A stretch of 42,213 nt of DNA from IMG/VR virus record IMGVR_UViG_3300025118_000036, positions 1 through 42,213 of that record, one strand, 5' to 3'. The translations under genes and the position numbers were made by a program. The stretch's first letter is position 1; every line of letters starts with the position of its first letter. The notes below the pieces were generated by a model, which worked only from the letters and a program-made list of their open reading frames with translations, had not been told where the DNA came from and did not search any database. Shown here piece after piece: positions 3,230 to 25,699 of the stretch. Source of the stretch: a virus.

Positions 3230-3282
3230 AGTTGTTGCCTCCTGGTCGTATTTTTAGGGTGTTGTTTTGCTTCTGCTTACCT

Positions 3283-11897: not shown

Positions 11898-14084
11898 ATG
11901 GATATGAAACTGCGTATAGAATTACCAATTGGCGAAAAAAAGTACACACTGGACTTTGATAAAGACAGTGAGGAAGGTGGCTTATCCAAGTGGGTGGGGC
12001 GTTGCCGTATCCCGTGTACGGGTTCTCTCCCAATGCAGGTTCGTCGTGTAGAACTAGCAAGCGAAGGCGGGGAAGAATCCTCTACAACTTTTAGTGAAGA
12101 AGGTGACGGCTCAATTTTAATTGAAGGGGTTGCTAGCTCAACCAGTGTTGATTGGCATGGGACAGAGATGAGCCTGACAGCCTTACACGGAATGGCCCAA
12201 CAATTTAAGGCTGGAGTACCGTATGTCCCAGGCCATTATGAAGATGAATGGGATCAGGTGTTTGGTGTTACTGTTGATGCCTCAGTAGAACAAGGCCAAA
12301 TAGCTAACGACGCCTTAGCTAAAGGTAATTCTGCTGGCTACCTACTCAAAGTTACTACCGCTTTATATAAAGAAGACAGCAGGGCTAAGCGGCTTTGCTC
12401 CTTATTAAGCCAAGGCGCAACCGTTGGTTGTTCCATCGGCGGGTGGTTTACGGAAATGGAAGTAATCACTAATTCTGAAGACGAAGTTGACCGTGTAATT
12501 ATTAACGGTGTGGAGCTTGATCATCTTGCTGTTACTCGCAGGCCAAGCAATCCAGATAGCTGGATTTCAGATGTGGCGAGGAGTGTGAGTGTGGCCGTAA
12601 AGGATTCACGTTCAGTTTTAGATGCTCCTAACTATGAAGTTAGCAATGAAGTTACTAAACGCTGTGGTACTTGTAGACATTTCAGTGGAACAAATTGGTG
12701 CGGCGCACATGAGTTTACCGCTTCCCCAGATTATGTTTGTGAATCATTGAGCGTAGAGAGCGGCGAAGAAATTATTGCACCAGCCGATCAAAATGTTGAT
12801 GTGGTTGTAGATGATGGGCCAGTAAATCCAGATGATCGCACTACCCTCCCACCCGAAGCAACAAGGGCAGCAACATCATTTGCTAATCTTCCGCTTGCAC
12901 CACCCGACGCCAAGTTCATCAAAAGCCCCTCTCAAATGGTAGAACTAAAAGATAACATATTGGGTACATTGTTCGGTGGTGATCCAGACTGGGATCGGTA
13001 CCGTAAGGCTTTCCTTTGGTTTGATGAAGAGCGTCCAGAAGAAAAAGATTCATACAAATTAGCAGTCGCTAGGATGTATGATCCAGATGCGCCAGATAAT
13101 GCCTCTTCACCTGACGGAACCTTGCATGTTTTTTATGATAAATTGCAAACCGTTGCTGAGAGGGTTGAATCGCAAAACCCTGGTATCCCAGAAGAAGATT
13201 TGGGTGAGGTAAAAGCTAACTTAGAAAGGTATATTGAAAAGTTTACTGCTGTAGAAGATGAAGATTTGCCGACAGGCGAAGACGAAGAAGCAGAGCTTTC
13301 TATACCCAGCCCGCAAGCAAGTACACGAGATGCTTGCGAAGAAGAAAATACGGTAGCCGATACAAATTCTTGCGATAGCGAGGATCTTGAAAAAGAGGCA
13401 CCTGAGTTCACACCAGAAGAGGCCCGCAATAAAGAGGACACAGTTCCACTTGACAGCGGCGTTAATATGGGTGAAAAATCTTTCAGCGAAGACGCACACC
13501 GAGGCGCAGAAGTGAAAGTTGATACAGTCAAAAACCTAAAACAAGAGGAACGCGCCATGAGCGATGTAAAAATCGAAGAAACCGCGCCTGTCACTGAGAA
13601 CCACGAAGCGAACACGCTAGAGGCAATTGCCCGCAGCATGGACGCTATGCAAGGACTTCTCGGTAAGCTCGTAGAGCGGGACATGGCGCAGACTAAAGAA
13701 CCCGTGCAGGAAACTGCACCTGAAACCAAAGAGGTTGATGGTAACGTAGAAGCAGAGCTTCGCGAGCGCCTTCAAGCTATGGAAGCTAAGATGGCACGGA
13801 TGGCGGCTCGCCCTGTTCGTAACGGATTTGCCCATAGCCCGAACGATATGCGTTCTTGCCAGCCTGGTCGCTTGGGTGAGTTTGTTCGCGCAATGGAAGA
13901 TGTGCAAGGTGGAGCAAGTGCTTTGGCTGCTGTTTGTAAAGAACAAGCCGAACGCCGCTCTATTGAAGGAATCGAAGAACTGCCGTCACGTGGCTCCCTT
14001 GAGAAAGACCTTCGGTCTGTACTTGAGGCTGCCTTTGTTGATGGTGTAATCACTGACCCTGACGCCCGTAACGGCTGGAGGTAG
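11898..14084 (+). CDS. Prohead maturation protease (S78-like) fused to a scaffold domain
   Basis: The product is 728 residues from ATG 11898; ATG 11904 and TTG 11865 are alternatives. Numbered from the TTG, the protease part has EGVASSTSVDWHGTE (87-101), VPGHYEDEW with a likely catalytic His (124), GATVGCSIGGW with the likely Ser (190), and ELDHLAVTRRPSNPDSW (217-233). This is the HK97-type protease pattern. A C267-x2-C270 ... C279 ... C292 cluster follows, then a DRYRKAFLWFDEE domain, an acidic stretch, and a coiled-coil scaffold (last 175 residues). The protease cleaves scaffold and capsid proteins during head maturation. An internal start for a separate scaffold is listed next. Confidence 0.85.
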   Translation: MDMKLRIELPIGEKKYTLDFDKDSEEGGLSKWVGRCRIPCTGSLPMQVRRVELASEGGEESSTTFSEEGDGSILIEGVASSTSVDWHGTEMSLTALHGMAQQFKAGVPYVPGHYEDEWDQVFGVTVDASVEQGQIANDALAKGNSAGYLLKVTTALYKEDSRAKRLCSLLSQGATVGCSIGGWFTEMEVITNSEDEVDRVIINGVELDHLAVTRRPSNPDSWISDVARSVSVAVKDSRSVLDAPNYEVSNEVTKRCGTCRHFSGTNWCGAHEFTASPDYVCESLSVESGEEIIAPADQNVDVVVDDGPVNPDDRTTLPPEATRAATSFANLPLAPPDAKFIKSPSQMVELKDNILGTLFGGDPDWDRYRKAFLWFDEERPEEKDSYKLAVARMYDPDAPDNASSPDGTLHVFYDKLQTVAERVESQNPGIPEEDLGEVKANLERYIEKFTAVEDEDLPTGEDEEAELSIPSPQASTRDACEEENTVADTNSCDSEDLEKEAPEFTPEEARNKEDTVPLDSGVNMGEKSFSEDAHRGAEVKVDTVKNLKQEERAMSDVKIEETAPVTENHEANTLEAIARSMDAMQGLLGKLVERDMAQTKEPVQETAPETKEVDGNVEAELRERLQAMEAKMARMAARPVRNGFAHSPNDMRSCQPGRLGEFVRAMEDVQGGASALAAVCKEQAERRSIEGIEELPSRGSLEKDLRSVLEAAFVDGVITDPDARNGWR
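13557..14084 (+). CDS. Nested scaffold protein, in frame with the protease 3' end
   Basis: ATG 13557 is in frame with the protease and is preceded by AAGAGG with an 8-base spacer. It would give a 175-residue protein opening MSDVKIEETAPVTENHEAN, rich in E, A and heptad-like helices (ELRERLQAMEAKMARM), as scaffolds are. This mirrors lambda gpC/gpNu3, where a protease gene contains an in-frame scaffold gene. The scaffold would fill the prohead and be removed by the protease. The capsid gene follows two bases after the stop. Codon use shifts toward CGN arginine from about 13550, consistent with higher expression of this part. Confidence 0.7.
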   Translation: MSDVKIEETAPVTENHEANTLEAIARSMDAMQGLLGKLVERDMAQTKEPVQETAPETKEVDGNVEAELRERLQAMEAKMARMAARPVRNGFAHSPNDMRSCQPGRLGEFVRAMEDVQGGASALAAVCKEQAERRSIEGIEELPSRGSLEKDLRSVLEAAFVDGVITDPDARNGWR

Positions 14085-14086
14085 AC

Positions 14087-15088
14087 ATGAGCGGTATTAT
14101 TTCCCCACAATGGGCTAACTTAGACAACAATCGTCGTGAGGCTTTTCAGCGTGCAATCAATGTATCGACTGCTGGAACCACACTTATCCAGAACTATGTG
14201 AATAAGATCATTCAGCAGCTTACTCTTCGTGAGTTTGGTGCCCTTGGTACTTTGCAACGTCGTCCTGGCCAAGGCTCGCAAGCAATCATCAATCGCCGAA
14301 CTGGTTCTTTGATGACTTCTGCGAGTGTTTGGGTTGGTGATACGGCTACAGTAGCTGAATCTACTGGTACTTACACACAGGCCACATTCACGTACCAAAC
14401 CCTTGTTACTCGCGGTAAAGTTACCCGCAAGATGCGTGCCCGTGGCCGCAGCTATGTGGATATCCTTGCAGAAGAGATGACTTGGAAGCTTGATGACTTC
14501 AACAATAAGCTTGAGTCTGCACTTTTCATTGGAGACAGCGCCACTGTGACTACACAGATTGATGGTATGCTTTCTCTTGTCGGTGCAGTTTCTGGTCAGG
14601 TTGTGGCTAACACCACTGCTGCGGCAGGCGACAGCTTGACGCTTGCAAAGCTTGACTCTGCCATTGATAAGGTCAAGGGAAGTGGATCACGCGCCGATCT
14701 TGTTATTTATGCGTCTTACTCAGGAGCGCGTAAGCTTAATGCTGCGCTTTCTGCCCGTCAGCGCTTTGATGACATGGTTGATATTGCGGCTGGTTTCCGT
14801 GTCCGTTCATACGACGGTATCCCAATCGTAGTTTCTACGGGTGTGCCTGATGATATGACTTGGTCTGGTAGCGCTATTACGGCGTTTACTGGTGAAACCA
14901 CAAACCCAACTACAGCGCTTATTGTAATGAACAAGCGCTACAACTGGCTTGAGGAGCTTACCCCAACGACAATGATGCCATTGGCACGCGATGATTCTCA
15001 ATTTGAGCAGTTCGATCTGTTCTGGGATGGAACGCTTGTTTTCGGAAACACCCTTGGTGGTGCTATCCTTGGCGGTATTGACGTATAG
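14087..15088 (+). CDS. Major capsid protein (HK97 fold)
   Basis: This 333-residue protein directly follows the protease/scaffold gene, with GGAGGT before the ATG. It has an N-terminal helix, a beta-rich E-loop-like segment (VGDTATVAESTGTYTQATFTYQTLVTRGKVTRKM, about 83-116, read in pieces), helix YVDILAEEMTWKLDDFNNKLESALFIGD, and the closing LFWDGTLVFGNTLGGAI. These, with the position, indicate an HK97-fold coat protein without the long delta domain. All arginines use CGN codons, unlike most neighbours, as expected for a very highly expressed gene. A strong terminator follows. Confidence 0.85.
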   Translation: MSGIISPQWANLDNNRREAFQRAINVSTAGTTLIQNYVNKIIQQLTLREFGALGTLQRRPGQGSQAIINRRTGSLMTSASVWVGDTATVAESTGTYTQATFTYQTLVTRGKVTRKMRARGRSYVDILAEEMTWKLDDFNNKLESALFIGDSATVTTQIDGMLSLVGAVSGQVVANTTAAAGDSLTLAKLDSAIDKVKGSGSRADLVIYASYSGARKLNAALSARQRFDDMVDIAAGFRVRSYDGIPIVVSTGVPDDMTWSGSAITAFTGETTNPTTALIVMNKRYNWLEELTPTTMMPLARDDSQFEQFDLFWDGTLVFGNTLGGAILGGIDV

Positions 15089-15112
15089 TAAGCAGATTGT
15101 TTACTACCATAT

Positions 15113-15153
15113 AGACCTGGCTAACTATTACGGTTGGCCAGGTCTTTGTGTTT
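15113..15153 (+). terminator. Intrinsic terminator after the capsid gene
   Basis: AGACCTGGCTAAC (15113-15125) pairs with GTTGGCCAGGTCT (15133-15145), 13 pairs with one wobble and a 7-base loop, followed by the T-rich TTGTGTTT. It lies 25 bases after the capsid stop and would limit read-through into downstream genes. Confidence 0.75.
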
Positions 15154-15174
15154 CTGATACAGTTAGATTACAAT
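15146..15174 (+). promoter_or_regulatory. Candidate promoter upstream of the winged-helix gene
   Basis: TTGTGT (15146-15151) and TACAAT (15169-15174) are separated by exactly 17 bases, directly after the terminator and 19 bases before the next ATG. The -10 matches the consensus at five of six positions, the -35 only at the first three plus spacing. It would restart transcription after the capsid terminator. Confidence 0.45.
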
Positions 15175-15192
15175 CAGCATTGGAGGTTAGAT

Positions 15193-15684
15193 ATGCCCGC
15201 TATTACAACTACAGTCCCTAAAGAAGAATCCTACAATTACGTTGTTGGACGAACAGATATAAATACTGAATTACATGACGCACAGGCGTATGAATTCCAT
15301 TCATACACTGAAAACCAAGACAGCCGATTGATTGAGTTTGGCTCTACGATTTACCACATGCTTTTCTTGCGAACGAGAGAAGCCAAAGAACGCGCTTGCT
15401 GCACTGGCTGGATGGATCTTACCCCACAGTGGAATGAGAAGTTAAATTCAATCCGCGTAGAGGCTACAACTGATAGTCAGCGCCAAATCTTGGCTGCGCT
15501 TGGAGATGGCGAGTGGCACAACAAGAAATTCATTACAAGCAATAGTACATTCAAAGATACTGAATGGAGAACTGCTATCAAAACATTGATGGATCGTAAA
15601 TTAGTTGAATGCAACATTTACGGCATGATGAAAGGCCGCGCTTCTAATCGTGGGTACAAGTACAGACTAGTCGTTAACGACTAA
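15193..15684 (+). CDS. Unknown protein with C-terminal winged-helix-like domain
   Basis: ATG 15193 with GGAGG 6 bases upstream gives 163 residues; the frame is open to 15148 but without a binding site. Residues 95-160 read as a winged helix: SQRQILAALGDGEWHNKKF, a helix DTEWRTAIKTLMDRKLVEC, and a basic wing ending GYKYRLVV. The first 90 residues are unassigned. It sits between a terminator and the connector genes with its own promoter candidate, so it may be a late regulator rather than a virion part. It could alternatively be a decoration protein, judged by position alone. I favour DNA binding. Confidence 0.55.
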   Translation: MPAITTTVPKEESYNYVVGRTDINTELHDAQAYEFHSYTENQDSRLIEFGSTIYHMLFLRTREAKERACCTGWMDLTPQWNEKLNSIRVEATTDSQRQILAALGDGEWHNKKFITSNSTFKDTEWRTAIKTLMDRKLVECNIYGMMKGRASNRGYKYRLVVND

Positions 15685-15695
15685 CAGGGGGATCA

Positions 15696-16262
15696 GTGGC
15701 AGACTTAACAACAAGGGTAAATGTAAAGCGGTTACTGGGTGTTCCCAGTGCTGTGACCATGCACGATGGTCTTATAGATACTTTGCTAGAAGTTGCTGAT
15801 GAACAAATCATTGCCTATACAGGCATGGCTGCCCTGACCCAAACTACTGTTACAGAGAAGTACAATATTGATGGGTCTGCTGAAACCCAATTTACATTAC
15901 GCAATTTCCCTATTAGCGCCGTTGCGGCAGTAAAAAGCGCAGGGCAAACATTATCTACTGACAGTTGGTATTTTGAGCCGCGTAGTGGCTTATTGGCCCT
16001 ATCAGATGCAAGCAGGTTCTTCGCATCAGGTAGACAAAACGTAGAAGTAACATATACTTATGGCTATAGTAGCGTACCAGCAGACCTGACTTATGCTGCA
16101 TCTCTTATCTGTGCCTATCATTTTAATGTTGGCAGGCACGCAGGTATGAGAAGCGAATCTGGGGGTGGGTACTCTTACAGGGTTTCTGAAAACTACCTAC
16201 CAGCAGCAGCAGAAGGTATTTTAGCTAAATACAAGAGAATTTTCCCAAAGGAGGGTAACTAA
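15696..16262 (+). CDS. Head-tail connector (gp6-like adaptor)
   Basis: This 188-residue protein starts at GTG 15696 with AGGGGG upstream. It opens like connector adaptors: a helical N-terminus (TRVNVKRLLGV, LIDTLLEVADEQIIAYTGM), then beta strands ending VEVTYTYGYSSVPADLTYAASLICAYHFN. The pattern 'VTYTYGYxxVPxDLxxAxxxxxxxxF' is characteristic of gp6/gp15-type adaptors that attach to the portal ring. Its stop overlaps the next ATG by one base. Confidence 0.8.
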   Translation: MADLTTRVNVKRLLGVPSAVTMHDGLIDTLLEVADEQIIAYTGMAALTQTTVTEKYNIDGSAETQFTLRNFPISAVAAVKSAGQTLSTDSWYFEPRSGLLALSDASRFFASGRQNVEVTYTYGYSSVPADLTYAASLICAYHFNVGRHAGMRSESGGGYSYRVSENYLPAAAEGILAKYKRIFPKEGN

Positions 16263-16735
16263 TGCCTTTTTACGTAAGAAGAATTGAAGAAGGTGATCCT
16301 TCTGGCATTTTGAAAGTGTTTTTACCAACAGCAGTGCTTAAAGCTAAGCGAAACAACGGCCAATGGTATGTTGAAGCTAACTATAGTGGCGTAGTAAACG
16401 CATTGCGTGATAATGGTTGGCGCAAAGCAAATGATAAGCGTCAAGCCCAACTGCAAGGCCCACAAAGCTCACCAAAGCCTAAGGCAGCAGCACCTAAAGC
16501 TAAGCCACCAGTGAAAAAGGCACAGCCTAAGCCTAAGCCTAAACCAAAAGCAAAGCCAAAGGCTGCCACACCACCTGTGGAATTAAGCCTGCTTGATAGT
16601 AGTGTTAAAGTGATTGAAAAATTGCTGCGTTCTGGCGATTACGATGCTTATTTGCAGCCACTTTTAGATGCAGAAAACGCTGGCAAAACTAGAAAAAGCG
16701 TTGTCACGCTGCTTGAAGACAGGTTGAGTAAGTAA
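16262..16735 (+). CDS. Unknown protein with Pro/Lys/Ala linker
   Basis: This 157-residue protein has a small N-terminal domain (1-60; MPFYVRRIEEGDPSG), an extended P/K/A linker (about 65-103, repeated PKPKPK), and a helical end (108-157; SVKVIEKLLRSGDYDAYLQPLL). The C-terminal helical unit resembles short modules in other phage structural genes, but I cannot name it. Both ends overlap the neighbours by one base, so it is probably coupled to the connector gene and the sugar enzyme gene. A link between virion parts is possible, based only on the linker architecture. Confidence 0.6.
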   Translation: MPFYVRRIEEGDPSGILKVFLPTAVLKAKRNNGQWYVEANYSGVVNALRDNGWRKANDKRQAQLQGPQSSPKPKAAAPKAKPPVKKAQPKPKPKPKAKPKAATPPVELSLLDSSVKVIEKLLRSGDYDAYLQPLLDAENAGKTRKSVVTLLEDRLSK

Positions 16736-17757
16736 TGAACGTGTTGGTAACAGGAGGCTGTGGTTTTATTGGCCAGCATTTAGTTGAGCGTTTGGCCGCA
16801 AACCCCTATGTCACATCTGTATGGGTCTTAGATATCTTAGATAAGACAGCTACAGGTAAGACTCGTATTTCAGAAATTTCAAAGCTGGTCATTGGCAATG
16901 TTTGTGACCCTGACTCTGTAAACACAGCTATCGTATCGGCATATTCAAACGGGACTCCGATTGATTTAGTTATGCACTTAGCAGCCCAATCACATGTGGA
17001 CGAAAGCCTGAAAGACAGCTCAGGTACAATGTATGTGAACGCTGTTGGTACTCAGGTAATAGCGACAGCATGTTCTTATCACGAAATCCCAATGCTTTAT
17101 TGTAGTACTGATGAAGTGTACGGCCCTTCAGCTATCACTGAGAATGGTGAAGTTGAAAAGAAAGGAGAAGGTGATGCCTTACTTCCAAGCAGCCCGTACA
17201 GCGCGGGGAAAGCGGCGGGCGAATTGTCGGTTCGCGCAGAAGGCAGAAGCTTTGGTTTGCAGTTTGCTATTACTAGGGGTTGTAATGCTTTCGGCCCAAA
17301 TCAATTCCCCGAAAAGTTAATCCCCATTGCTTGCCAAGCACTACAATCACACAGCAAAGTCCCACTGCATGGCGGTGGCAGCCAAATTAGGCAATGGGTT
17401 CATGTTTCCGAGTTTGTAGAAACTTTAATGGCGGTTGGCTCTAAGCTTGTAGCTGGAACCTTAATTCACGACACTTACAACATCGCAGGCCCAACAAGCA
17501 CAACAGTAAGGGAGCTTGTAGAGGGTTTAGCTCTCGTATCAGATTACCCAGAAAGCATGGAGCCTGGTGAAACCGTTGGTGATCGACCAGGCCAAGATGA
17601 GGCTTATTACGTTTGCGGCGATAGGTTTTTTAATGAGTTTGGCTGGAGGCCAAAGCGATCTATTTTAGATGAATTCGAGCTTTCAGCGCTCTTGGATTCA
17701 TATAAGGATATAGAAAGCGTATATATCGCAAACTACACTGTTACACCTATAGCATAG
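16735..17757 (+). CDS. NAD-dependent sugar-nucleotide dehydratase (dTDP-glucose 4,6-dehydratase-like)
   Basis: This 340-residue extended short-chain dehydrogenase has the Rossmann motif TGGCGFIGQ (6-14), HLAAQSHVDESL (81-92), STDEVYG (124-130) and the catalytic YSAGK (155-159). NAFGPNQFPEKLIP and HGGGSQIRQWVHV complete the match to RmlB-type enzymes. The Asp-Glu of STDEVYG are the residues used for dehydration in 4,6-dehydratases, so conversion of an NDP-hexose to a 4-keto-6-deoxy sugar is likely. It starts one base inside the preceding gene. The setting, between a head-tail connector and later structural genes, is unusual and suggests supply of a modified sugar for the glycosyltransferase downstream. 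Confidence 0.88.
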   Translation: MNVLVTGGCGFIGQHLVERLAANPYVTSVWVLDILDKTATGKTRISEISKLVIGNVCDPDSVNTAIVSAYSNGTPIDLVMHLAAQSHVDESLKDSSGTMYVNAVGTQVIATACSYHEIPMLYCSTDEVYGPSAITENGEVEKKGEGDALLPSSPYSAGKAAGELSVRAEGRSFGLQFAITRGCNAFGPNQFPEKLIPIACQALQSHSKVPLHGGGSQIRQWVHVSEFVETLMAVGSKLVAGTLIHDTYNIAGPTSTTVRELVEGLALVSDYPESMEPGETVGDRPGQDEAYYVCGDRFFNEFGWRPKRSILDEFELSALLDSYKDIESVYIANYTVTPIA

Positions 17758-17765
17758 GAGAAGAC

Positions 17766-18317
17766 ATGCTTTTTTATAGAGGAAATGAATACATTGGGGT
17801 TATCCCTGCGGGGGTGGAATTAAAAGGCCGCCTTGCAGATGGTTTGAGTATGGCAAATTGTGTAGTCAGTTTTGATGATCATAAAAAAGCTGTTTGTGTT
17901 GGGAAAATGGGTTTGCTCGAAGAAGGTAAATCCTCGTTTTATAGCGGGGAAAAATTCTTAGTGGTTTGGGGTGATAACGATAAGCAAATGGCAGAACATC
18001 TTTCTAACCGACCTAGGCGCTGCATTGTTTATGTTGGTAGTAAGCCCGCTGGGGCCACATCTGAAGCGATGCTTAAGCTTTATGATAAAGATCCATCCCA
18101 TACTGTTTACCGTTTCGATAATCCAAGCAAAGCAGTACGGGTTGTTGTCTTGTCAGATGAAGATCCAGTTGCCCAAACATACGACGGATCTAAATGGGTA
18201 GGCTTAGTAGATAGTAAGCCAAAACCTAAAGTTGTAGCCCCAAAACCCGCCACCCCAAAGGCAACCGACGTAAAGAAAGAAGAAAAGACAAAGAAAGTCG
18301 AAAAAAAAGAAAAGTGA
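17766..18317 (+). CDS. Unknown protein with Lys-rich tail in the sugar cassette
   Basis: This 183-residue protein has AGGAGA before its ATG. Residues 1-145 look like a small beta-rich fold (MLFYRGNEYIGVIPAGVELKG; RRCIVYVGSKPAGATSEAM; VRVVVLSDEDP). The last 35 residues are low-complexity K/P/A/E. The tail is like that of the gene at 16262 but shorter and more basic. Its stop overlaps the next start (GTGA). No enzymatic motif is seen. Structural or carrier roles are possible. Confidence 0.55.
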   Translation: MLFYRGNEYIGVIPAGVELKGRLADGLSMANCVVSFDDHKKAVCVGKMGLLEEGKSSFYSGEKFLVVWGDNDKQMAEHLSNRPRRCIVYVGSKPAGATSEAMLKLYDKDPSHTVYRFDNPSKAVRVVVLSDEDPVAQTYDGSKWVGLVDSKPKPKVVAPKPATPKATDVKKEEKTKKVEKKEK

Positions 18318-18937
18318 GACTAGATACTGCAAAGGAAGTGATTGATACTTTGTCTAAGTATGACAAGGTTATCGTTAGCGGTTGCCAAAGATCAGGTACA
18401 ACCATTTGTTCACAGATGTTATCTATGGACTTAGGCTGTACGTGGATTGATGAAACTGATGTCGCTAATGATTGGCGGGAGGTTTCACGCCTTTTGTTAG
18501 GCGGCGGTACATTCGTACTTCAAGCGCCAGCCTTGTCTTCGAAAATGGATCTTATACCTGAAGATCCAAAATGCGCTATTGTTTGGATGAGAAGACCAAA
18601 ACAAGAAGTTGTTCGCAGCATGGCTAGGATAAAGTGGAATGTGCATGAGAGGCAAGAGAAGTCTTCTTACATTGCAAGGTGGGGGTACCATGATGGGCAA
18701 CATATTTGGGATATTAAGAAAGATGCTTGGGAAACAAAACAAAAACCAGCCCTAAGTGTTGATTGGTATGAGATTGGGTACCATTCTGAATATGTAGAGG
18801 GCCACTTTCTTTTTAAAACAAAATCTTCTAGGGTGGGGCACCTTTGGCAAAATCCAAAGTTTACTAGCCACACAAAGCTCTTAATAGAAGAAGATCCAAT
18901 GACGGCTAGTATACGCCGCCACCACAAAAGGGGGTAA
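18314..18937 (+). CDS. P-loop sulfotransferase-like protein
   Basis: This 207-residue protein starts at GTG 18314, overlapping the preceding stop. VIVSGCQRSGTTICSQML (19-36) matches the 5'-phosphosulfate loop of PAPS-dependent sulfotransferases (typically PRSGTT). CAIVWMRRPKQEVVRSM (87-103) matches their 3'-phosphate motif (RDPRxVxxS). The enzyme would transfer sulfate from PAPS to a hydroxyl or amino group, often on a glycan. Other P-loop enzymes share RSGTT, so kinase-like alternatives remain. It lies between the dehydratase and the giant glycosyltransferase, fitting a glycan-modifying pathway. Confidence 0.6.
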   Translation: MRLDTAKEVIDTLSKYDKVIVSGCQRSGTTICSQMLSMDLGCTWIDETDVANDWREVSRLLLGGGTFVLQAPALSSKMDLIPEDPKCAIVWMRRPKQEVVRSMARIKWNVHERQEKSSYIARWGYHDGQHIWDIKKDAWETKQKPALSVDWYEIGYHSEYVEGHFLFKTKSSRVGHLWQNPKFTSHTKLLIEEDPMTASIRRHHKRG

Positions 18938-18939
18938 CC

Positions 18940-19572
18940 ATGGCTATAGCTTCTGGGCTTGCTTCACGTTGGTTTACTTTTAGTAGGCGAACAGCATACT
19001 TAATGTCCCCCACAACTGCTTCAGCAAGCATGTCTGCTACATACGCTATTCCAGGTGGCGGTAGTTATATAGAGGTAACTATCGCAAGCGGAACAACAGG
19101 GAGCGGTACAGTAACCATATCAGGAACAGACACCTCTTCTGTTTCAGCTAACCAAACACTCACCTTCACTGGAAACGGCACCCAAGTAACTACGACCAAG
19201 TTTGCCACTATTAGCGGGATCACTACAACAGATTTAGCCGACGAAACTTCTATAGCTACTGTTGCCTTGCAATCGGTAAGTGCTGATGGGACAGCAAATT
19301 TAATAAGTGTTGAGGTTGCTTCTAATCGGCCTGTTTGGTTTAACTTTTCTGGGCAACCAAACTATCCCGCCTTGACACAAGGTACGCATGAAATGGACGC
19401 AGCCTACCTGCGTATTGATCGTGAAGAAGTTTGGACTCCGCAGGTAGAAGACATTGCAACTGATATACAGACAAATGATCAATGGCTTGTTAGAGCAGTA
19501 CGTGATGTTCGTATCGGTTACGGTGCAAGAACAGAACATTACTTATTGAGAGCAACAAGATACACAACATAA
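18940..19572 (+). CDS. Putative virion protein, possible head closure protein with Ig-like insert
   Basis: This 210-residue protein starts two bases after the preceding stop, with GGGG upstream. Residues 1-25 (SRWFTFSRRTAYLM) and 130-210 (EEVWTPQVEDIATDIQTNDQWLV, ending HYLLRATRYTT, read in pieces) resemble the two halves of a small beta-barrel head-tail stopper. The intervening T/S/G-rich segment (25-128) looks like an Ig-like beta sandwich. If right, an Ig-like domain is inserted in, or carried by, a connector. It is the one structural-looking gene inside the sugar cassette. An alternative is a decoration protein. Confidence 0.45.
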   Translation: MAIASGLASRWFTFSRRTAYLMSPTTASASMSATYAIPGGGSYIEVTIASGTTGSGTVTISGTDTSSVSANQTLTFTGNGTQVTTTKFATISGITTTDLADETSIATVALQSVSADGTANLISVEVASNRPVWFNFSGQPNYPALTQGTHEMDAAYLRIDREEVWTPQVEDIATDIQTNDQWLVRAVRDVRIGYGARTEHYLLRATRYTT

Positions 19573-19598
19573 ATCACGCAAAAGCCCAGGAGGTAAGT

Positions 19599-22523
19599 GT
19601 GGAATTAGTCGCCAACTTCAAAAAAGATACAGTAAATCAATTTGATATTATTGTCCCAACAATGGGGTCATTAGATCTTATTGTCCCAGCTATTGAACGT
19701 ATTCTTTTTCACACTAAGAAATCAAAATTCAAACTTGTTGTCGTGAATAATCCAACAAGCAAGGGTAAAGCGGAAGCTGCGCTTTCTAAAAAAGAAGTTG
19801 AGAAGCTTTGTTCTGAATTCAACTCTACAGGATCTAATGGGATAGTAAACCAGTGTGTTGAGCTAAATTGGTTAGACATGGACTCACCCGCTGGGTGGGT
19901 TGGTGCGGTCAATTTTGGCTTATTTAGCATTTTACATTTTGCACCCACTGTCATCATTATGAATGATGATGTAATCGTCACTAATAAATGGGCCGAAAAG
20001 TTAGATAATGCCCTTAATACAGATCGCATTTGGTTTGAAAGTAAGGTGGATTTAGACGGTGGTTATTACGAATCAGATGGCGATTCAATTGCTTCCTATG
20101 GAAGGGTTGGCGCTGTTGGCCCACTGTCTACACAGGTTGCAGGGCAACAGTCTATTCAACAGGGAGATATACAGGGGAACGCTTTAGAATTTTATACGCA
20201 TGGTGCATACAAAGTCTTGGATGACTTTGTTCGTTCCTGGGAGCCAGGGAAATCTGGCCGCGTACTTAATACAGACTTTCTTTCTGGTTTCTGCGTTGCA
20301 TACAAAAGAGAGTGTATCGAAGAATTAGTCCAACAGGGTGAAGATGGTCACCCTTTTTTCCTAGACCCCCACTTTGGAATCGGAGGGTACGATGATAATG
20401 ATGTTGCAGCCCGCGCCGACCAGTCTGGGTGGAAATTAGGGGTTGCTTCTGATTGTTATGTCCACCATAAAGGTCACCAAACTTTAGACAAGCACTTCCC
20501 AGAACTTGAGCGCGGGCTTGCGAATGTTGGGCCTTACGTTGAAAAATGGGGCGCAGTCAATACAACCGATAAGAAGATCATTGGTTGTATGCGGGTAAAG
20601 CTCAATACTATGCACGATGTAGGCATGTTTTATGAGTGTGTTCGCCGTAATTCTCAAATGATTGATGGGCTTGCCGTTTTAATGACAGGCAACCCGTATG
20701 AGGTAACACAGGCGTTTGATTGGAATGGTAATGCCCTAGACCCAAATGCCCAAAAAATGATTGCTTCTTGCGGAGAAGCAAGTAGCCCCCAAAGTATTGC
20801 CAATGCAGTGAAAGTATGGCTAGAATCCGCAGTTAGTGAAAATGATCATGATGTGCCCGTTATTACTGATACATGGCACGGTAAATTTAATGAGCGAGAT
20901 GAGCGCAATAAGTCTATTGAAATGGCTGAGTCTCTAGATGCTGATTGGGTATTTTCTATTGATCACGATGAGTTTTTAGAAGATCGGGTTGATCGCCAAT
21001 TGTTTCGTCGGCTTATTGCCCACCCAAACCCCCTTGTAAAATCATTTGACTTTGGATGGCTAAACCACTGGGACACTACCCGTGTTTGCCGAGTAGACGC
21101 GCCTTGGTGCAATGGGTACGTTGGTGGGATGCACGGTGCTAGATTGTGGAAGGTTAATAAGTCTGAACACGCTAAAGGAAGGATTACAGGTGGTAGGACT
21201 GACGGTGAAAATGACGTTGGGCTGCACTGCGGTAATTCGCCAGACTTTACCGTCCTTTCTCGCCGTGTATCTGGTATTCGGTTTAGACATTTTGGGTACA
21301 TTCGCCATGCAGATCGTATTCGCAAGCACCAGTTCTATACAACGATTGATCCAAACCCAAACATGGTTTTAACTGGTGGGGGATATAGCCACCTTGTTGA
21401 CGAAGAGAACATGAAGCTAAGCCCTTATGTGGCTCATAATGGTATTGCTTTTTCTATGCTTCTCCATAAGGCTGATCAGATCGGCGGCCTTTATCGCTTC
21501 TTAGACCATACCTATGCCCTCTGCGATCAAATCGTATTGGTCTGGACTGGCCCTAAAGGCACAAAGCCCCCTGAGTCTATGAAGACTGTGGCCAAAGCGT
21601 TTGGGGCGTCTTGGGTCTACAAGCCGTTCAATAATGATCTTGCGGAAGTACGCAATGCTGGCCTTGATCATATCCGTGAAACCAAACGCGAAGCTACGCG
21701 GTGGTTCTTTACTATGGATGATGACGAGCATTTGCGGCAAGACTTTATGTCATGCCTCTCTTTACGCCGAATGGCAGAGTGCTCTAATACTTGGGGCTGG
21801 ATGTTGAAATTTAGAAATTGGCGTGACGACGGTACTTTCAACTACAGCGAAACAATTAGAATGTTCCTCATAGATCCTAACGGTGTAATGAAATACGCCA
21901 ACAGGGTGCATGAAAGCGTAGAAGCTTCAATCTTAAAGATTAAAAACATGGGGCTGCACCCACAAGTTCGGTTTGCACCATTTGAAGTTGATCATATTGG
22001 CTTGGGTCTTAGTAAAGATCAAATGCAAGCAAAGCTTGAGTTTTACACCAAGCTCTTGGAAATGCAGTTGTTAGAAGACCCAACTAATACTGGTGGGTGG
22101 TGTTCTTTAGGTTTGCAGTTTATGAATGATGGCCAAACAGAAGAAGCTAGGATCTGTTTCCAAAACTCAGTTGCGGTTGCTGGGGATTCTTACCTTGGGT
22201 TTAGAGAACTTGCTACTTGGCACCTACGGCAAGCATTCGGGTTGCTCATTGGTGCTGACGAACGCTTATCTCCAGCACACCCCGTTAAAGAATTGTTGCA
22301 CCAACAGCTTGCTTTCTTGAAAGAATTCTGCCCACCATTCCCTGTCTCTGGAAGCGCCTCTGAAGGCAATCCTATTAAGACAAATGTTGATTTACAGGCC
22401 CTCCAAGAAAGCTTTATTAAAGCAATGTCTGAGATTGCATCATTTGATACGGGGGATACAGAACTTCAGATCCCAGACGACTTTGGTGATACAGTAGTAG
22501 AGTCTACTGAAAACAGGGTGTAG
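19599..22523 (+). CDS. Giant glycosyltransferase with three GT-A-like domains and a TPR-like end
   Basis: This 974-residue protein starts at GTG 19599 behind AGGAGGT. Domain 1 (about 13-310) has FDIIVPTMGSLD, MNDDV at 121-125 and GIGGYDDNDVAARA (260-273), like family 2 transferases. Domain 2 (about 326-600) has RDERN (433-437) and DHDEF (455-459). Domain 3 (about 615-805) has EVRNAGLDHIRE and MDDDEH (706-711). Residues 812-900 hold helical repeats resembling TPR units. Each acidic cluster is a candidate DxD metal/sugar-nucleotide site. Such enzymes transfer sugars from nucleotide donors. No signal peptide is seen, so it should act in the cytoplasm. With the dehydratase and sulfotransferase-like genes it suggests assembly of a short glycan, possibly on virion proteins. 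Confidence 0.8.
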   Translation: MELVANFKKDTVNQFDIIVPTMGSLDLIVPAIERILFHTKKSKFKLVVVNNPTSKGKAEAALSKKEVEKLCSEFNSTGSNGIVNQCVELNWLDMDSPAGWVGAVNFGLFSILHFAPTVIIMNDDVIVTNKWAEKLDNALNTDRIWFESKVDLDGGYYESDGDSIASYGRVGAVGPLSTQVAGQQSIQQGDIQGNALEFYTHGAYKVLDDFVRSWEPGKSGRVLNTDFLSGFCVAYKRECIEELVQQGEDGHPFFLDPHFGIGGYDDNDVAARADQSGWKLGVASDCYVHHKGHQTLDKHFPELERGLANVGPYVEKWGAVNTTDKKIIGCMRVKLNTMHDVGMFYECVRRNSQMIDGLAVLMTGNPYEVTQAFDWNGNALDPNAQKMIASCGEASSPQSIANAVKVWLESAVSENDHDVPVITDTWHGKFNERDERNKSIEMAESLDADWVFSIDHDEFLEDRVDRQLFRRLIAHPNPLVKSFDFGWLNHWDTTRVCRVDAPWCNGYVGGMHGARLWKVNKSEHAKGRITGGRTDGENDVGLHCGNSPDFTVLSRRVSGIRFRHFGYIRHADRIRKHQFYTTIDPNPNMVLTGGGYSHLVDEENMKLSPYVAHNGIAFSMLLHKADQIGGLYRFLDHTYALCDQIVLVWTGPKGTKPPESMKTVAKAFGASWVYKPFNNDLAEVRNAGLDHIRETKREATRWFFTMDDDEHLRQDFMSCLSLRRMAECSNTWGWMLKFRNWRDDGTFNYSETIRMFLIDPNGVMKYANRVHESVEASILKIKNMGLHPQVRFAPFEVDHIGLGLSKDQMQAKLEFYTKLLEMQLLEDPTNTGGWCSLGLQFMNDGQTEEARICFQNSVAVAGDSYLGFRELATWHLRQAFGLLIGADERLSPAHPVKELLHQQLAFLKEFCPPFPVSGSASEGNPIKTNVDLQALQESFIKAMSEIASFDTGDTELQIPDDFGDTVVESTENRV

Positions 22524-22525
22524 TT

Positions 22526-23020
22526 ATGTCTGGAGTAACGCTAAAAATTAACTCTTCAGATATGGCTATCGCTAAAAGGCTTCTACGAAAGCTGCCCAAG
22601 AAAATGAAAGGTAGGATTAGTAAAGATGCCCTTACTAAGGGGACAAGCGTTTATGTAGAAAAGTTTTTAAAACCAGCTTTAGACAAGCGTGATCATACTT
22701 TGAGCCACCTTGCTGCACTTGGTCACCCGTATGCAAGAAAACACGGGTCAATACAAATACACAGCAAGAACCCTTGGGTTGTACACCGTAGGACTGGTGC
22801 TTTATACAACAGTATTCGTTCTGAAATTAAGACTTCATTTACGGGGCATTCAGTAAGGGTTTACCCTGACTTAGGTGCTGCGCCGCACATCAGGTATGTA
22901 TTTAGCGGAACCAGGAATATGCTGCCAAGAGATCCTTTTACAGGGGTGAAAAAGAAAGCTAAGGCAGATATTGAGTTTGCAGTTATCAATCACATAATGG
23001 ATGAAATGGATAAATTATAG
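22526..23020 (+). CDS. HK97 gp10-like head-tail/neck protein
   Basis: This 164-residue basic protein has the gp10-like pattern: an N-terminal helical stretch (RLLRKLPKKMKGR), WVVHRRTGALYNSI at about 89-102, and a C-terminal half with HIRYVFSGTRNMLPRDPF at about 120-137. Proteins of this family sit at the neck or tail-completion interface. It lies two bases after the glycosyltransferase stop, and its own stop overlaps the next GTG. This restores the standard structural gene order after the inserted cassette. Confidence 0.75.
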   Translation: MSGVTLKINSSDMAIAKRLLRKLPKKMKGRISKDALTKGTSVYVEKFLKPALDKRDHTLSHLAALGHPYARKHGSIQIHSKNPWVVHRRTGALYNSIRSEIKTSFTGHSVRVYPDLGAAPHIRYVFSGTRNMLPRDPFTGVKKKAKADIEFAVINHIMDEMDKL

Positions 23021-23448
23021 TGGCGCGTTTTGTAAATATAGAATCAACCAAGCTTTTGGTAAGATCGGTACTATTGGCCGATGCAAGTGTTTCTGCGCTT
23101 GTTGGAAACAGGGTTTGGGGGGCACACTTTCAGGACTCTGATGGTAAAACAGTAACATACCCAATGGTTATTATTGACTTTCAGGCTGGCACTGTTGGCT
23201 CTAATGGAGTGTATGAAGAAGTGTCCATGGACTTGTATGCTTATGGCAGAAAAAGTTCAGGGTTTACTTTAGAATTATACCAAGCGTGTTTTGAAGCATT
23301 ACAGAACGCCACTTTACGAAAGGATGGCATCCCTGTAGCTGGGTATTGTGTTGAAACATTGCGCCCTTTAGAAGGGTGGAATGAAAATGTACGCGCTTAT
23401 TTTGCACAAGGGCAGTACAAATTACGCATTTCACATAGGGAGTTATAA
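23020..23448 (+). CDS. Tail terminator-like protein (DUF3168 type)
   Basis: This 142-residue protein starts at GTG 23020, overlapping the preceding stop. LLADASVSALVGNRVWGAHF, then YPMVIIDFQAG, then a beta strand VSMDLYAYGR and helix YQACFEALQNATL form the small alpha/beta fold of tail terminators, which cap the tail tube and join it to the head. The position just before the tail tube gene supports it. Stop and next start overlap (TAATG). Confidence 0.75.
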   Translation: MARFVNIESTKLLVRSVLLADASVSALVGNRVWGAHFQDSDGKTVTYPMVIIDFQAGTVGSNGVYEEVSMDLYAYGRKSSGFTLELYQACFEALQNATLRKDGIPVAGYCVETLRPLEGWNENVRAYFAQGQYKLRISHREL

Positions 23449-23645
23449 TGAGAACCCAAGACTGGAGAGCGTCAAACGCGCCAAATGGGCCACAATCAAT
23501 TGTCAAATGCCCAGATTGTTCTAAAAATATTTTTGTAATAGAACGAGGCCAATCAATTTCCCTAAAAGGCAAAGGGGAACTTGTTGAAAAAACCTGCAAT
23601 TGTGGTTGCTCTATTAAGATTAGGATTATTGAAAATGCAAGCTAA
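23448..23645 (+). CDS. Small zinc-ribbon protein before the tail tube gene
   Basis: This 65-residue protein has C21-x2-C24 (CPDC) and C50-x-C52-x-C54 (CNCGC), a zinc-ribbon arrangement. AGGGAG precedes the ATG, which overlaps the preceding stop. It overlaps the following zinc-ribbon gene by about 11 bases in another frame. Function unknown. A nucleic-acid-binding regulator is possible. Confidence 0.6.
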   Translation: MRTQDWRASNAPNGPQSIVKCPDCSKNIFVIERGQSISLKGKGELVEKTCNCGCSIKIRIIENAS

Positions 23646-23994
23646 CCAAAAAAACCAACCGTACCAAGACGGTGTTTCAGAACGCCTTCAAAAAATGGAA
23701 ATGGTAATCCACGAGATTGACTCCCAGTTACAGCATGTGCAGGCTATGGTTATCGTTGCCAACAATTCTTCGAGCGAACAAGATGTTACACATGATTCAA
23801 AACACCCGATGCGGGATGATGTTTGGGCTTGCCAGAATTGTGGAGCTAGGTTGGGCATTTATAACAAAGAGCGCGAAGAGCTACGGGTAAGGTACAAAGA
23901 TTTTGTTGCTTATGTCACCCCTGGGGTTGGGGGCAAAACAATGGTGCCATGTCGCCGTTGTGGTGAACAAAATACGTTGAAAGACGAAAGATAA
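23635..23994 (+). CDS. Com-like zinc-ribbon protein
   Basis: ATG 23635, inside the end of the previous gene, gives 119 residues; the frame is open upstream to 23581 but without a binding site. The N-terminal half is helical (SERLQKMEMVIHEIDSQLQ). The C-terminal half has C66-x2-C69 and C106-x2-C109 (CQNCGARLG, CRRCGEQNTL). The layout resembles, in outline only, the Mu Com translational regulator. It directly precedes the leader element and tail tube gene, so a regulatory role is conceivable but unproven. Confidence 0.55.
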   Translation: MQANQKNQPYQDGVSERLQKMEMVIHEIDSQLQHVQAMVIVANNSSSEQDVTHDSKHPMRDDVWACQNCGARLGIYNKEREELRVRYKDFVAYVTPGVGGKTMVPCRRCGEQNTLKDER

Positions 23995-24008
23995 CCACAT
24001 GAATGTAG

Positions 24009-24066
24009 ACTAAAATACAGATACGTGGTATTCAGTATCTAAGCATTGGACGCCTAACAGGTGCAG
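24009..24066 (+). promoter_or_regulatory. Shared leader element B, upstream of the tail tube gene
   Basis: This segment reads ACTAAAATACAGATAC, ATTCAGT, CATTGGACGCC, TAACAGGTGCAG, repeating the blocks at 11842-11885 in the same order with small insertions. It is clearly non-coding here: the preceding gene ends at 23994 and the next ATG is at 24102. Both copies precede abundant virion proteins. A promoter, leader hairpin or binding site for a late regulator would all fit. Confidence 0.5.
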
Positions 24067-24101
24067 CATAATTTTGTAAACCATAACTAAGAGGCGATCC
24101 G

Positions 24102-24647
24102 ATGCCATATAATGTTCCCACTATTACAACCAACGATATTTCGTTTGGCCCTGCTGTTCTTTTTCTCGGCCCTGCTGGCGCTACCCCAACTGTAGATGTT
24201 GGCGCTATTGCAGAAGATGGCGTTTCTATTGAAATGTCTGCCGAAAAGAAAGTTATTACTCAGGGTAACCCTAAGTTGAATGTTTATACGTTCACTCAAG
24301 CACAGTCAGTCATGGCTAAGTTTACCAGTATTGAGTGGGACTTTATGAACATGGGCCGCGCCCTTGGTGCAGGAGCAACCCATTCGTCTGGTACAGAGCT
24401 TCGTTGGGGTGGTGATCCACTTGTTGAAGAGCTTGCCCTTCACATCCAACACTACATGGCAGTTACAGGCAACACCATGAACGTTTACTTGTGGAAGTGC
24501 GTTAGTGAAAGTGGAGTGTCTCCATCTTTCGGTGCAGACGAACATTCGTTTGAATACAGCTTCCAGGCTCTCCGCAGCACTACTGATTGGGCTTCTGCAT
24601 CGCTTCCAGCGACCGAGCAGTTAGTCAAGTTCAAGCGGGACGTATAA
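24102..24647 (+). CDS. Major tail tube protein
   Basis: This 181-residue protein has AAGAGG before its ATG. It is beta-rich with ISFGPAVLFLGPAGATP at the front, EDGVSIEMSAEKKVITQGNP at about 43-62, and a closing SFEYSFQALRSTTDW. These match siphovirus tail tube proteins, which stack as hexameric rings. All arginines use CGN codons, as in the capsid gene, fitting high expression. An excellent terminator follows, and the leader element precedes it. Confidence 0.82.
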   Translation: MPYNVPTITTNDISFGPAVLFLGPAGATPTVDVGAIAEDGVSIEMSAEKKVITQGNPKLNVYTFTQAQSVMAKFTSIEWDFMNMGRALGAGATHSSGTELRWGGDPLVEELALHIQHYMAVTGNTMNVYLWKCVSESGVSPSFGADEHSFEYSFQALRSTTDWASASLPATEQLVKFKRDV

Positions 24648-24681
24648 TATTTAGATTTAGCCTCTCAGCTAAATGTGCCAC

Positions 24682-24724
24682 GAAGGGGTGCCTGCTACGG
24701 ACAGCAGGTGCCTCTTCTTTTTTT
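24682..24724 (+). terminator. Intrinsic terminator after the tail tube gene
   Basis: GAAGGGGTGCCTGCT (24682-24696) pairs over all 15 positions (three wobbles) with AGCAGGTGCCTCTTC (24703-24717), loop ACGGAC, followed by seven T (24718-24724). It lies 34 bases after the stop and separates the tail tube gene from the chaperone genes. Confidence 0.9.
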
Positions 24725-24825
24725 GCCTGTTACTTTAGTCAAAAGTACGATATGGATATATTGAAGCCTATGCTATTTTAGTGCTTGTAAATAATACAGT
24801 CATAAACACGCCCTAGGAGGTGAAT

Positions 24826-25344
24826 ATGCAAGAGCAAACAGAGACTACGCCACCAGCAACCCCAACCGTAAACGGGGTAGTTGACGAGGTAGCACAAGAT
24901 AAGCAGTTTTTTGAGCAAATGGAATCATTGCTGTCCAAGCTTGTCCCACCAGATGAAGTGGTGCTGACGACTTGCACAGGCAACAAAATTACCCTCCCAG
25001 GAACGATTGCTGCACGCCAGCAAATCAAAGTATTCCGACTGATGCGGAGCTTGTTTGATGAAGGTGAGATCAAGAATATCTTATCTGCATTTTCGGGTGA
25101 AGCCGAATCAAGCATTATTGATATTGTCCTTTCCATTGCTACAAATGAAGTGATCGCAGAAAAGCTTGGTGAAATTTTCACTGCTGCGTACCCAACAGCA
25201 CTTGCTGGAGAAGACCCGCTTGATGTGTTGCCGCTAGAGGAGTTGATTACATCACTTGTCCCTTTTTCCGAACGCTTCATCAAGAAACTGGGGATGGGGG
25301 TAGCGACTCTAGGGAAGAACGCGATGGAGCTTCAGGAAAACTAA
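24826..25344 (+). CDS. Tail assembly chaperone, upstream frame (gpG-like)
   Basis: ATG 24826 with TAGGAGGT 5 bases upstream gives 172 residues (GTG 24820 is a possible but worse start). The protein is acidic and helical (QFFEQMESLLSKLVPPDEVV; IKVFRLMRSLFDEGEIKNIL), as expected for the first member of the chaperone pair between tail tube and tape measure genes. It would bind the tape measure protein and recruit tube subunits. A CCCTTTT slip site near the end allows a longer product including the next frame. The preceding 100 bases after the terminator must hold a promoter; TTTAGT-N17-TATATT near 24736-24764 is a weak candidate. Confidence 0.75.
   Translation: MQEQTETTPPATPTVNGVVDEVAQDKQFFEQMESLLSKLVPPDEVVLTTCTGNKITLPGTIAARQQIKVFRLMRSLFDEGEIKNILSAFSGEAESSIIDIVLSIATNEVIAEKLGEIFTAAYPTALAGEDPLDVLPLEELITSLVPFSERFIKKLGMGVATLGKNAMELQEN
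25260..25266 (+). other. Programmed -1 ribosomal frameshift site CCCTTTT
   Basis: In the zero frame the heptamer reads C CCT TTT, a perfect X XXY YYZ slippery sequence. After a -1 slip the new frame is open for 122 codons, through to TAG 25632-25634, fusing both tail chaperone parts into a 269-residue protein. Upstream-frame termination is 78 bases later at 25344. This is the standard lambda gpG/gpGT arrangement. Confidence 0.7.
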
Positions 25345-25634: not shown

Positions 25635-25699
25635 ATACAGTTCTGAAATATTGGTGTAAATGAGCTAATGTATAGTGGGTAATTCGGGGAAAATTTAAG

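What the first reader, a model, noticed from the sequence alone, without database searches (positions are those of the whole stretch)
16735..22523. Sugar/sulfate cassette inside the head-to-tail structural block
Seen: a 4,6-dehydratase-like enzyme, a lysine-tailed unknown, a P-loop sulfotransferase-like protein, a possible connector with Ig-like insert, and a 974-residue multi-domain glycosyltransferase, all coupled by overlaps and lying between a gp6-like connector and a gp10-like neck protein. Known: phage glycosylation genes usually lie beside fibres or in accessory regions, and some phages glycosylate their virions. Inference: this may be a dedicated virion-glycan system producing a deoxysugar-containing, perhaps sulfated, glycan on capsid or tail proteins, hiding the particle or binding hosts.
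Basis: partly seen in the sequence, partly recalled or inferred. Interest (0 to 1): 0.82.

Follow-up and report, generated by a model that had tools for sequence, protein, structure and literature searches.

The report
Phage glycan-making genes between connector genes
A group of uncultured tailed phages keeps genes for a three-part sugar-adding enzyme, a deoxysugar enzyme and a sulfate- or methyl-adding enzyme between the genes that join head to tail, which suggests that they decorate their own particles with a tailored glycan, although this has not been shown by experiment.

Summary
Window 16735-22523 encodes an RmlB-like 4,6-dehydratase, a Lys-tailed unknown, a sulfotransferase-like P-loop protein, a stopper-like connector and a 974-aa glycosyltransferase (GT), between a gp6-like adaptor and a Neck1-like gene. 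The order is kept in relatives, under purifying selection.

The GT has three GT-A domains plus a TPR region. Its third domain resembles SunS, ThuS and GmaR, which glycosylate proteins.

Of 20 GT clusters (90% aa), 15 have stopper-like and neck genes as the GT's nearest recognised neighbours. Of 12 close clusters, 11 keep the dehydratase (the twelfth contig is cut); tailoring genes vary: sulfotransferase only 3, methyltransferase plus sulfotransferase 2, methyltransferase only 6, sulfotransferase with upstream cut 1. Of 8 distant clusters, none has these enzymes beside the GT. RmlC- and RmlD-like genes lie elsewhere in several records.

Most likely a virion-protein glycosylation cassette with exchangeable tailoring. 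Main rival: glycosylation of modified DNA, since the 71-kb record of the same virus encodes a TET/JBP dioxygenase. Acceptor, sugar and sulfation are inferred; the sulfotransferase call is the weakest. New variant of a known kind.

The parts
15696..16262 (+). gp6-like head-tail adaptor, left border of the block
   Evidence: PF05135 3.4e-5; phrog_442 head-tail adaptor 3.8e-24
16262..16735 (+). Lys/Pro/Ala-rich protein of unknown function between adaptor and dehydratase; conserved ends, variable linker
   Evidence: alignment A5; in relatives
16735..17757 (+). RmlB-like (dTDP-glucose 4,6-dehydratase-like) SDR enzyme; STDEVYG and YxxxK residues invariant in 6 sequences
   Evidence: PF01370 7.6e-45; ten best PDB sequence matches are named dTDP-glucose 4,6-dehydratases (two as putative or hypothetical), best 4e-56; TIGR01181 206.7 bits, below its cut-off 365.1; invariant columns of A12
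17766..18317 (+). unknown protein with Lys/Pro-rich tail
   Evidence: no Pfam or PHROGs match; homologs in close relatives, only 18-23% alike in L020/L021
18314..18937 (+). sulfotransferase-like P-loop protein; GxQR[S/A]GT loop without the kinase Lys and an Arg with a Ser eight residues later in 8 of 8 sequences printed (L008 and L018 probably one genome)
   Evidence: PF13469 4.2e-4, below cut-off; A11; motif listing; model pLDDT 81.8; fold matches to both kinases and sulfotransferases
18940..19572 (+). stopper-like connector by position, with a Ser/Thr-rich, by eye Ig-like, stretch; candidate acceptor
   Evidence: highest Ser+Thr fraction (26.7%) of the 37 window ORFs picked; no family match
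19599..22523 (+). triple GT-A glycosyltransferase plus helical TPR-like region; borders read by eye from the model: about 10-320, 325-600, 605-800, helices 806-922
   Evidence: model pLDDT 86.4, pTM 0.85; profile A13 matches GmaR 5.1e-33, SunS 4.7e-26, chondroitin synthase 7.4e-14 and engineered TPR proteins; Foldseek SunS 2.8e-12, chondroitin polymerase 1.7e-11; VIA ThuS Z 18.4; acidic motif residues of all three domains invariant in 22 rows
22526..23020 (+). Neck1/tail-completion-like protein, right border
   Evidence: phrog_5 0.0049; in relatives
23020..23448 (+). gp17-like tail completion (terminator-like) protein
   Evidence: PF11367 0.0042, below cut-off

Best explanation
The block is a virion-protein glycosylation cassette in the late structural operon. 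Shown by sequence or model: the dehydratase is RmlB-like; the large GT has three GT-A domains and a TPR-like region; its third domain resembles enzymes that put sugar directly on proteins (SunS/ThuS on Cys, GmaR on flagellin; these acceptors are recalled); the block is kept in place; the tailoring gene switches between sulfotransferase-like and methyltransferase. Inferred: the third domain with its helical region binds a virion protein (best guess the adjacent Ser/Thr-rich stopper-like protein, otherwise tail or capsid protein) and attaches the first sugar from a nucleotide sugar; the other two domains extend it; the dehydratase, with RmlC-like and in some phages RmlD-like enzymes encoded elsewhere, supplies a 6-deoxysugar donor; the sulfotransferase (with host PAPS) or the methyltransferase caps the glycan.
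For: Stopper-like and neck genes are the GT's nearest recognised neighbours in 15 of 20 GT clusters. Dehydratase in 11 of 12 close clusters; tailoring genes in the 12: sulfotransferase only 3, both 2, methyltransferase only 6, sulfotransferase with upstream cut 1. Third GT domain: GmaR 5.1e-33 and SunS 4.7e-26 by profile, ThuS Z 18.4 over 265 residues and SunS Z 17.4 over 252. Acidic motif residues of all three domains invariant in 22 of 22 rows. RmlC-like in 5 of 16 records by Pfam and a sixth by own profile; RmlD-like in 6 of 16. Low dN/dS. Scan of the cellular collection with the GT alignment: 245 pattern hits, none a relative.
Against: No glycan, sulfate or acceptor was observed. The sulfotransferase call rests on motifs and sub-threshold Pfam matches; its fold matches kinases slightly better (gluconokinase Z 10.1, TPST2 Z 8.4), and its profile's best PDB sequence hits are weak and to an adenylyltransferase (0.035) and a cytidylate kinase (0.24). 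The same virus encodes a TET/JBP dioxygenase. Domain 1 matches fit many acceptors. No PF00483 in 16 records and no RmlD-like gene in G001, so donor synthesis would need host enzymes. Five of 20 clusters depart from the stopper-GT-neck order, and unassigned frames lie between the recognised genes in some. Ser/Thr richness of the stopper-like protein is not general.
Confidence: 0.6

Rival explanations
1. DNA hypermodification: the phage makes 5-hydroxymethylcytosine with its TET/JBP enzyme, and the GT and deoxysugar enzymes build a tailored glycan on the base, protecting the genome from host nucleases.
For: TET/JBP (PF12851, over cut-off) in 3 of 10 records searched: G001 (71-kb record of the same virus), G004, G009; in G001 it stands near a ParB_N, a radical SAM and a cupin gene. 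DNA glucosylation is the usual reading of phage GTs (PMC12619734, passages; Pyle 2024 seen only in its reference list).
Against: The GT is in 10 of 10 of these records, TET in 3; G006 and G007 (75 kb each) have GT, dehydratase, methyltransferase, RmlC- and RmlD-like genes but no TET match (the 42-kb window record ends before the place where G001 has TET). Thymidylate-synthase-like: 0 of 10. In G001 TET is about 23 kb from the GT. Third GT domain is peptide-GT-like. Records may be incomplete.
Confidence: 0.17
2. Host-surface modification: the enzymes alter host glycans during infection, for instance to block superinfection.
For: Domain 1 and distant GT homologs match polysaccharide and rhamnosyl/fucosyl transferases; this role is proposed for GTs of freshwater actinophages (PMC10202952, passages). 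One 19-residue stretch of the window GT has mean hydropathy 1.75 (residue 103), a little over the customary 1.6 (threshold recalled).
Against: That stretch covers a helix and a strand of the GT-A core in the model, and nine other GTs reach at most 1.41. Placement between connector genes; peptide-GT-like third domain.
Confidence: 0.13
3. The P-loop protein is a kinase, not a sulfotransferase, so there is no sulfate (this can be true together with the best explanation).
For: Best structural matches are gluconokinase and shikimate-kinase-like folds (Z up to 10.1); a putative kinase ties with Teg14 for best Foldseek E-value (6.4e-4); weak kinase hit.
Against: The loop GxQR[S/A]GT lacks the Walker A Lys in 8 of 8 sequences (motif recalled). 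Sulfotransfer_3 is the best Pfam match in 3 of 3 sequences tested, each below cut-off (4.2e-4, 0.056, 0.0021). Teg14, StaL and TPST2 are among the structural matches.
Confidence: 0.25
4. Passenger genes in the structural operon without a role in the virion.
For: Distant relatives lack dehydratase, methyltransferase and sulfotransferase beside the GT.
Against: dN/dS 0.076-0.135; order kept across the close clusters; GT kept near the same place in distant phages.
Confidence: 0.05

Closest known systems
Mycobacteriophage virion glycosylation (Che8, Rita; Freeman 2023 not held, known here through passages of PMC11256854 and PMC12619734)
   Same: Phage glycosyltransferases tied to glycans on capsid or tail tube proteins.
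   Different: In the relative Maravista the GT genes lie near the 3' end of the genome (PMC11256854 passage). Here one triple-domain GT, a dehydratase and a sulfotransferase-like gene or methyltransferase sit among the head-tail connector genes.
SunS/ThuS peptide S-glycosyltransferases and GmaR flagellin glycosyltransferase
   Same: GT-A domain followed by a helical/TPR region; profile and fold matches to the third GT domain.
   Different: Here the unit is the last of three GT domains, and the acceptor is unknown.
Chlorovirus PBCV-1 and mimivirus autonomous glycosylation (PMC4691112, passages)
   Same: Virus-encoded nucleotide-sugar enzymes and a multidomain GT (a64r: GT-A plus methyltransferase domain) linked to virion glycans.
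   Different: Eukaryotic large DNA viruses with other capsids; no sulfotransferase in the passages seen.
E. coli K4 chondroitin polymerase (2z86)
   Same: Tandem GT-A domains in one protein; matches the N-terminal part.
   Different: A polysaccharide polymerase with two GT domains; no peptide-GT-like third domain (recalled).
Sulfotransfer_3 genes of marine OM43 phages (PMC10580990, passages)
   Same: PF13469 genes in marine phage genomes; that paper calls their function in phages unclear.
   Different: No GT is mentioned in that paper's main text (term count 0).

Membership tests
dTDP-glucose 4,6-dehydratase (RmlB) | Overall similarity to characterised RmlB | tested here: met
   Ten best PDB sequence matches, E 4e-56 to 1.8e-51, are named dTDP-glucose 4,6-dehydratases, two of them as putative or hypothetical
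dTDP-glucose 4,6-dehydratase (RmlB) | NCBIfam equivalog cut-off TIGR01181 | tested here: not met
   206.7 bits against 365.1; so only RmlB-like, nucleotide of the donor open
dTDP-glucose 4,6-dehydratase (RmlB) | Catalytic Thr-Asp-Glu and YxxxK (roles recalled) | tested here: met
   T125, D126, E127, Y155, K159 invariant in 6 sequences
PAPS-dependent sulfotransferase | Pfam gathering score | tested here: not met
   PF13469 21.1 bits against 27, PF00685 17.5 against 22; L020 and L031 homologs also below
PAPS-dependent sulfotransferase | RSGTT-type loop without kinase Lys, and Arg-x7-Ser motif (motifs recalled) | tested here: met
   8 of 8 sequences printed, one of them RAGTH; R94 and S102 invariant in 6
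PAPS-dependent sulfotransferase | Sulfotransferase fold rather than P-loop kinase fold | tested here: inconclusive
   Teg14 6.4e-4, StaL 1.9e-3, TPST2 Z 8.4; kinases up to Z 10.1
PAPS-dependent sulfotransferase | PAPS binding and sulfate transfer | not testable with these tools
   needs an enzyme assay
GT2-type (GT-A) glycosyltransferase | GT-A domains with acidic motif, three in one protein | tested here: met
   model matches; N122/D124, D455/D457/E458, D707/D709/E710 invariant in 22 rows; three PF00535 matches over cut-off in one frame in each of G012-G015
SunS/GmaR-like protein glycosyltransferase | GT-A domain plus helical repeats similar to SunS/GmaR | tested here: met
   GmaR 5.1e-33, SunS 4.7e-26; ThuS Z 18.4, SunS Z 17.4
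SunS/GmaR-like protein glycosyltransferase | NCBIfam TIGR04195 equivalog cut-off | tested here: not met
   window GT no match; three distant homologs 64-82 bits against 350
Phage virion glycosylation system | Glycan on a virion protein | not testable with these tools
   uncultured virus; needs virion mass spectrometry

The most novel reading that the evidence does not exclude
A dedicated neck-glycosylation machine: the triple GT modifies the Ser/Thr-rich, Ig-like stretch of the neighbouring stopper-like protein (by eye a similar stretch is present in the stopper-like proteins of distant GT phages), building a 6-deoxy glycan that lineages cap with sulfate or a methyl group, so that tailed phages carry an exchangeable glycan collar at the head-tail junction.
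Probability: 0.22. Interest if true: 0.82.

Novelty: new variant of a known kind. Interest (0 to 1): 0.62.

Why it matters
Virion glycosylation by phages is known from few systems. Here gene order ties a peptide-GT-like triple enzyme to the head-tail connectors across a wide range of uncultured phages, and the change between sulfotransferase-like and methyltransferase genes at one site suggests selection on the end group of the glycan. That makes the question of what a phage gains from a surface glycan testable with defined proteins. It would also give a role to phage sulfotransferase genes, which PMC10580990 calls unclear (passage).

Tried and rejected
Matches in named phages: megablast of window 14000-26000 against 50,697 phage records gave none; tblastn of the GT and of the sulfotransferase-like protein gave none; the capsid protein gave 5 distant matches. 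tblastn of a distant GT (L058) gave nine partial hits, none covering 80%, not followed. The scan of 84,980 cellular genomes with the GT alignment had 245 pattern hits and no confirmed relative; it needs exact short peptide patterns, so distant cellular relatives can be missed.

The model of the sulfotransferase-like protein did not separate kinase from sulfotransferase; its profile against PDB sequences gave four hits, best E 0.035. The RmlC-like L061:11093-11677 had no PDB hit at 1e-5 by single-sequence search, though it is over the Pfam cut-off.

Dropped or merged before counts: L022 (137 GT residues at 27%) was left out; loci of one contig were counted once, and GT proteins were clustered at 90% identity. 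L042 was judged from L043-L045, because a long frame in L042 scores as stopper ahead of the methyltransferase. Seventeen further loci without a GT, or cut short, were not in the GT count. L008 and L018 probably are one genome.

Literature: listings of searches showed no paper describing this cassette; that speaks of these searches only. Seven papers were seen in passages; none was read whole. Freeman 2023 is not held.
Full report
What is there. The window is a 42,213-base virus record with terminase, portal, protease, capsid and connector genes in the usual order, then tail genes (tape measure by length and position). Between the gp6-like adaptor (15696-16262) and the Neck1-like gene (22526-23020) lie a Lys-rich protein, an RmlB-like dehydratase, a Lys-tailed unknown, a sulfotransferase-like P-loop protein, a stopper-like protein with a Ser/Thr-rich stretch, and a 974-residue glycosyltransferase. 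Successive genes are spaced -1, -1, 8, -4, 2, 26, 2, -1 bases.

Relatives. Capsid, GT, sulfotransferase and stopper-like queries on the viral collection brought in near copies (L004: proteins 100%, GT 99.8%), close relatives (L005: dehydratase 82%, GT 83%; L006: both about 65%) and more distant ones (L020, L021: GT 41-42%; others down to 24%). Profiles from two to six seeds each were run over the loci. GT proteins fall into 20 clusters at 90% identity. In 15 of 20 the nearest recognised neighbours are the stopper-like gene upstream and the neck gene downstream. The five others: L051 (further genes between stopper and GT), L054 (GT before the stopper), L055 (no stopper recognised), L056 and L060 (no neighbour recognised). 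Unassigned frames of 130 aa or more lie between stopper and GT in some, for instance L038, L050 and L057. Stopper and neck scores in the distant group are weak (15-83 bits).

Cassette content. Of the 12 closer clusters 11 have the dehydratase; in the twelfth, L048, the contig starts at the sulfotransferase gene. Tailoring genes: sulfotransferase only in 3 (window/L004, L005, L006/L018), methyltransferase plus sulfotransferase in 2 (L020, L030 group), methyltransferase only in 6 (L021, L038, L040 group, L043 group, L049, L050), sulfotransferase with upstream cut in 1 (L048). The methyltransferase is over the Pfam cut-off in 4 of 4 sequences tested. In the six methyltransferase-only loci no frame near the GT has the GxQRxGT motif. 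None of the 8 distant clusters shows dehydratase, methyltransferase or sulfotransferase beside the GT; L058 has a dehydratase-like gene about 8 kb upstream, ahead of its capsid gene. In a GT tree the sulfotransferase-only group is one clade (100/100), the distant group is one side of a branch (100/100), and L048 (sulfotransferase) is sister of L050 (methyltransferase only), so tailoring genes have turned over unless L048's missing upstream part changes the picture. The methyltransferase-only group is weakly held (68/39), the backbone among L020, L021 and L031 is not resolved, three distant rows are long branches and ten rows have odd composition.

The enzymes. Dehydratase: PF01370 7.6e-45, PDB matches to dTDP-glucose 4,6-dehydratases, catalytic residues invariant in six, RmlB equivalog score under cut-off. 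Sulfotransferase-like protein: Pfam matches under cut-off in 3 of 3 sequences; GxQR[S/A]GT loop without the kinase Lys and Arg-x7-Ser in 8 of 8 sequences (meaning of the motifs recalled); model pLDDT 81.8 matching kinases (Z to 10.1) and sulfotransferases (TPST2 Z 8.4; Teg14 and StaL by Foldseek); weak PDB sequence hits are to an adenylyltransferase and a kinase. GT: model pLDDT 86.4, pTM 0.85. The best VIA rows are polypeptide GalNAc-transferases (Z to 19.1, aligned from residue 11 on, mostly domain 1). Residues 502-897 match ThuS (Z 18.4, 265 aligned) and SunS (Z 17.4). By profile: engineered TPR proteins 5.8e-46, GmaR 5.1e-33, SunS 4.7e-26, chondroitin synthase 7.4e-14. Acidic motif residues of all three domains are invariant in 22 rows; G012-G015 each show three PF00535 matches over cut-off in one frame. 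GmaR as a GT plus TPR protein: PMC3150276 (passages).

Sugar supply. RmlC-like genes (PF00908 over cut-off) stand elsewhere in 5 of 16 records, G001 among them; an own profile found a sixth in G004. RmlD-like genes are in 6 of 16 (G006-G011), not in G001. PF00483 (RmlA-type): 0 of 16. PF01041 aminotransferase: 1 of 16, the distant G013. Records may be incomplete.

Selection and acceptor. dN/dS for window against L005: dehydratase 0.109, unknown 0.130, sulfotransferase 0.135, stopper-like 0.103, GT 0.076; neighbours adaptor 0.037, Lys-rich 0.184, neck 0.170, tail 0.095. Synonymous sites are near or past saturation, against L006 mostly so, and the unknown reaches 0.337 there; these are rough. 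The stopper-like protein is the richest in Ser+Thr (26.7%) of the 37 window ORFs picked, but in other close clusters it is 13-26% (the lowest from an overlong frame) and in distant ones 15-19%, so the richness is not general. It is my best acceptor guess, no more.

Rival: DNA. Thymidylate-synthase-like genes: 0 of 10 records. TET/JBP: 3 of 10 (G001, G004, G009). In G001 TET stands near ParB_N, radical SAM and cupin genes, about 23 kb from the GT. This points to a modified genome and lowers my confidence. Against it: G006 and G007, 75 kb each, have the sugar genes and no TET match, and the third GT domain is peptide-GT-like.

Verdict. The best reading is a virion-protein glycosylation cassette with exchangeable tailoring; sugar, acceptor and sulfate are inferred. 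It is a new variant of phage virion glycosylation, known from mycobacteriophages (through PMC11256854 and PMC12619734, passages) and suggested for phage XacN1 (PMC5852040, passages).

Noticed in passing
L070:12765-13643 (G001, 71-kb record of the same virus), with L070:12103-12768 and L071:384-1755: TET/JBP dioxygenase near ParB_N, radical SAM/SPASM and cupin (mannose-6-phosphate isomerase-like) genes: a probable DNA base-hypermodification locus.
   Followed up: partly
L061:7876-10699: MoxR-type AAA ATPase followed by a VWA-domain protein in the phage genome.
   Followed up: no
window 23448-23994: Two overlapping small Cys-rich ORFs (zinc-ribbon-like by eye) between the terminator-like and tail protein genes, with homologs in relatives.
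   Followed up: no
L008 (contig 3300035204_001160) and L018 (3300035204_001041): Two contigs of one sample both end inside the sulfotransferase-like gene; probably one genome split by assembly.
   Followed up: no
L051:2464-6616: In this distant phage two tail-protein-like genes and a 990-aa unknown lie between the stopper-like gene and the GT.
   Followed up: no
record G013 (L053): 2917-4083 and 77231-80077: A distant phage with the triple GT also has a DegT-type aminotransferase, a further GT2 and a dehydratase-like gene elsewhere.
   Followed up: no
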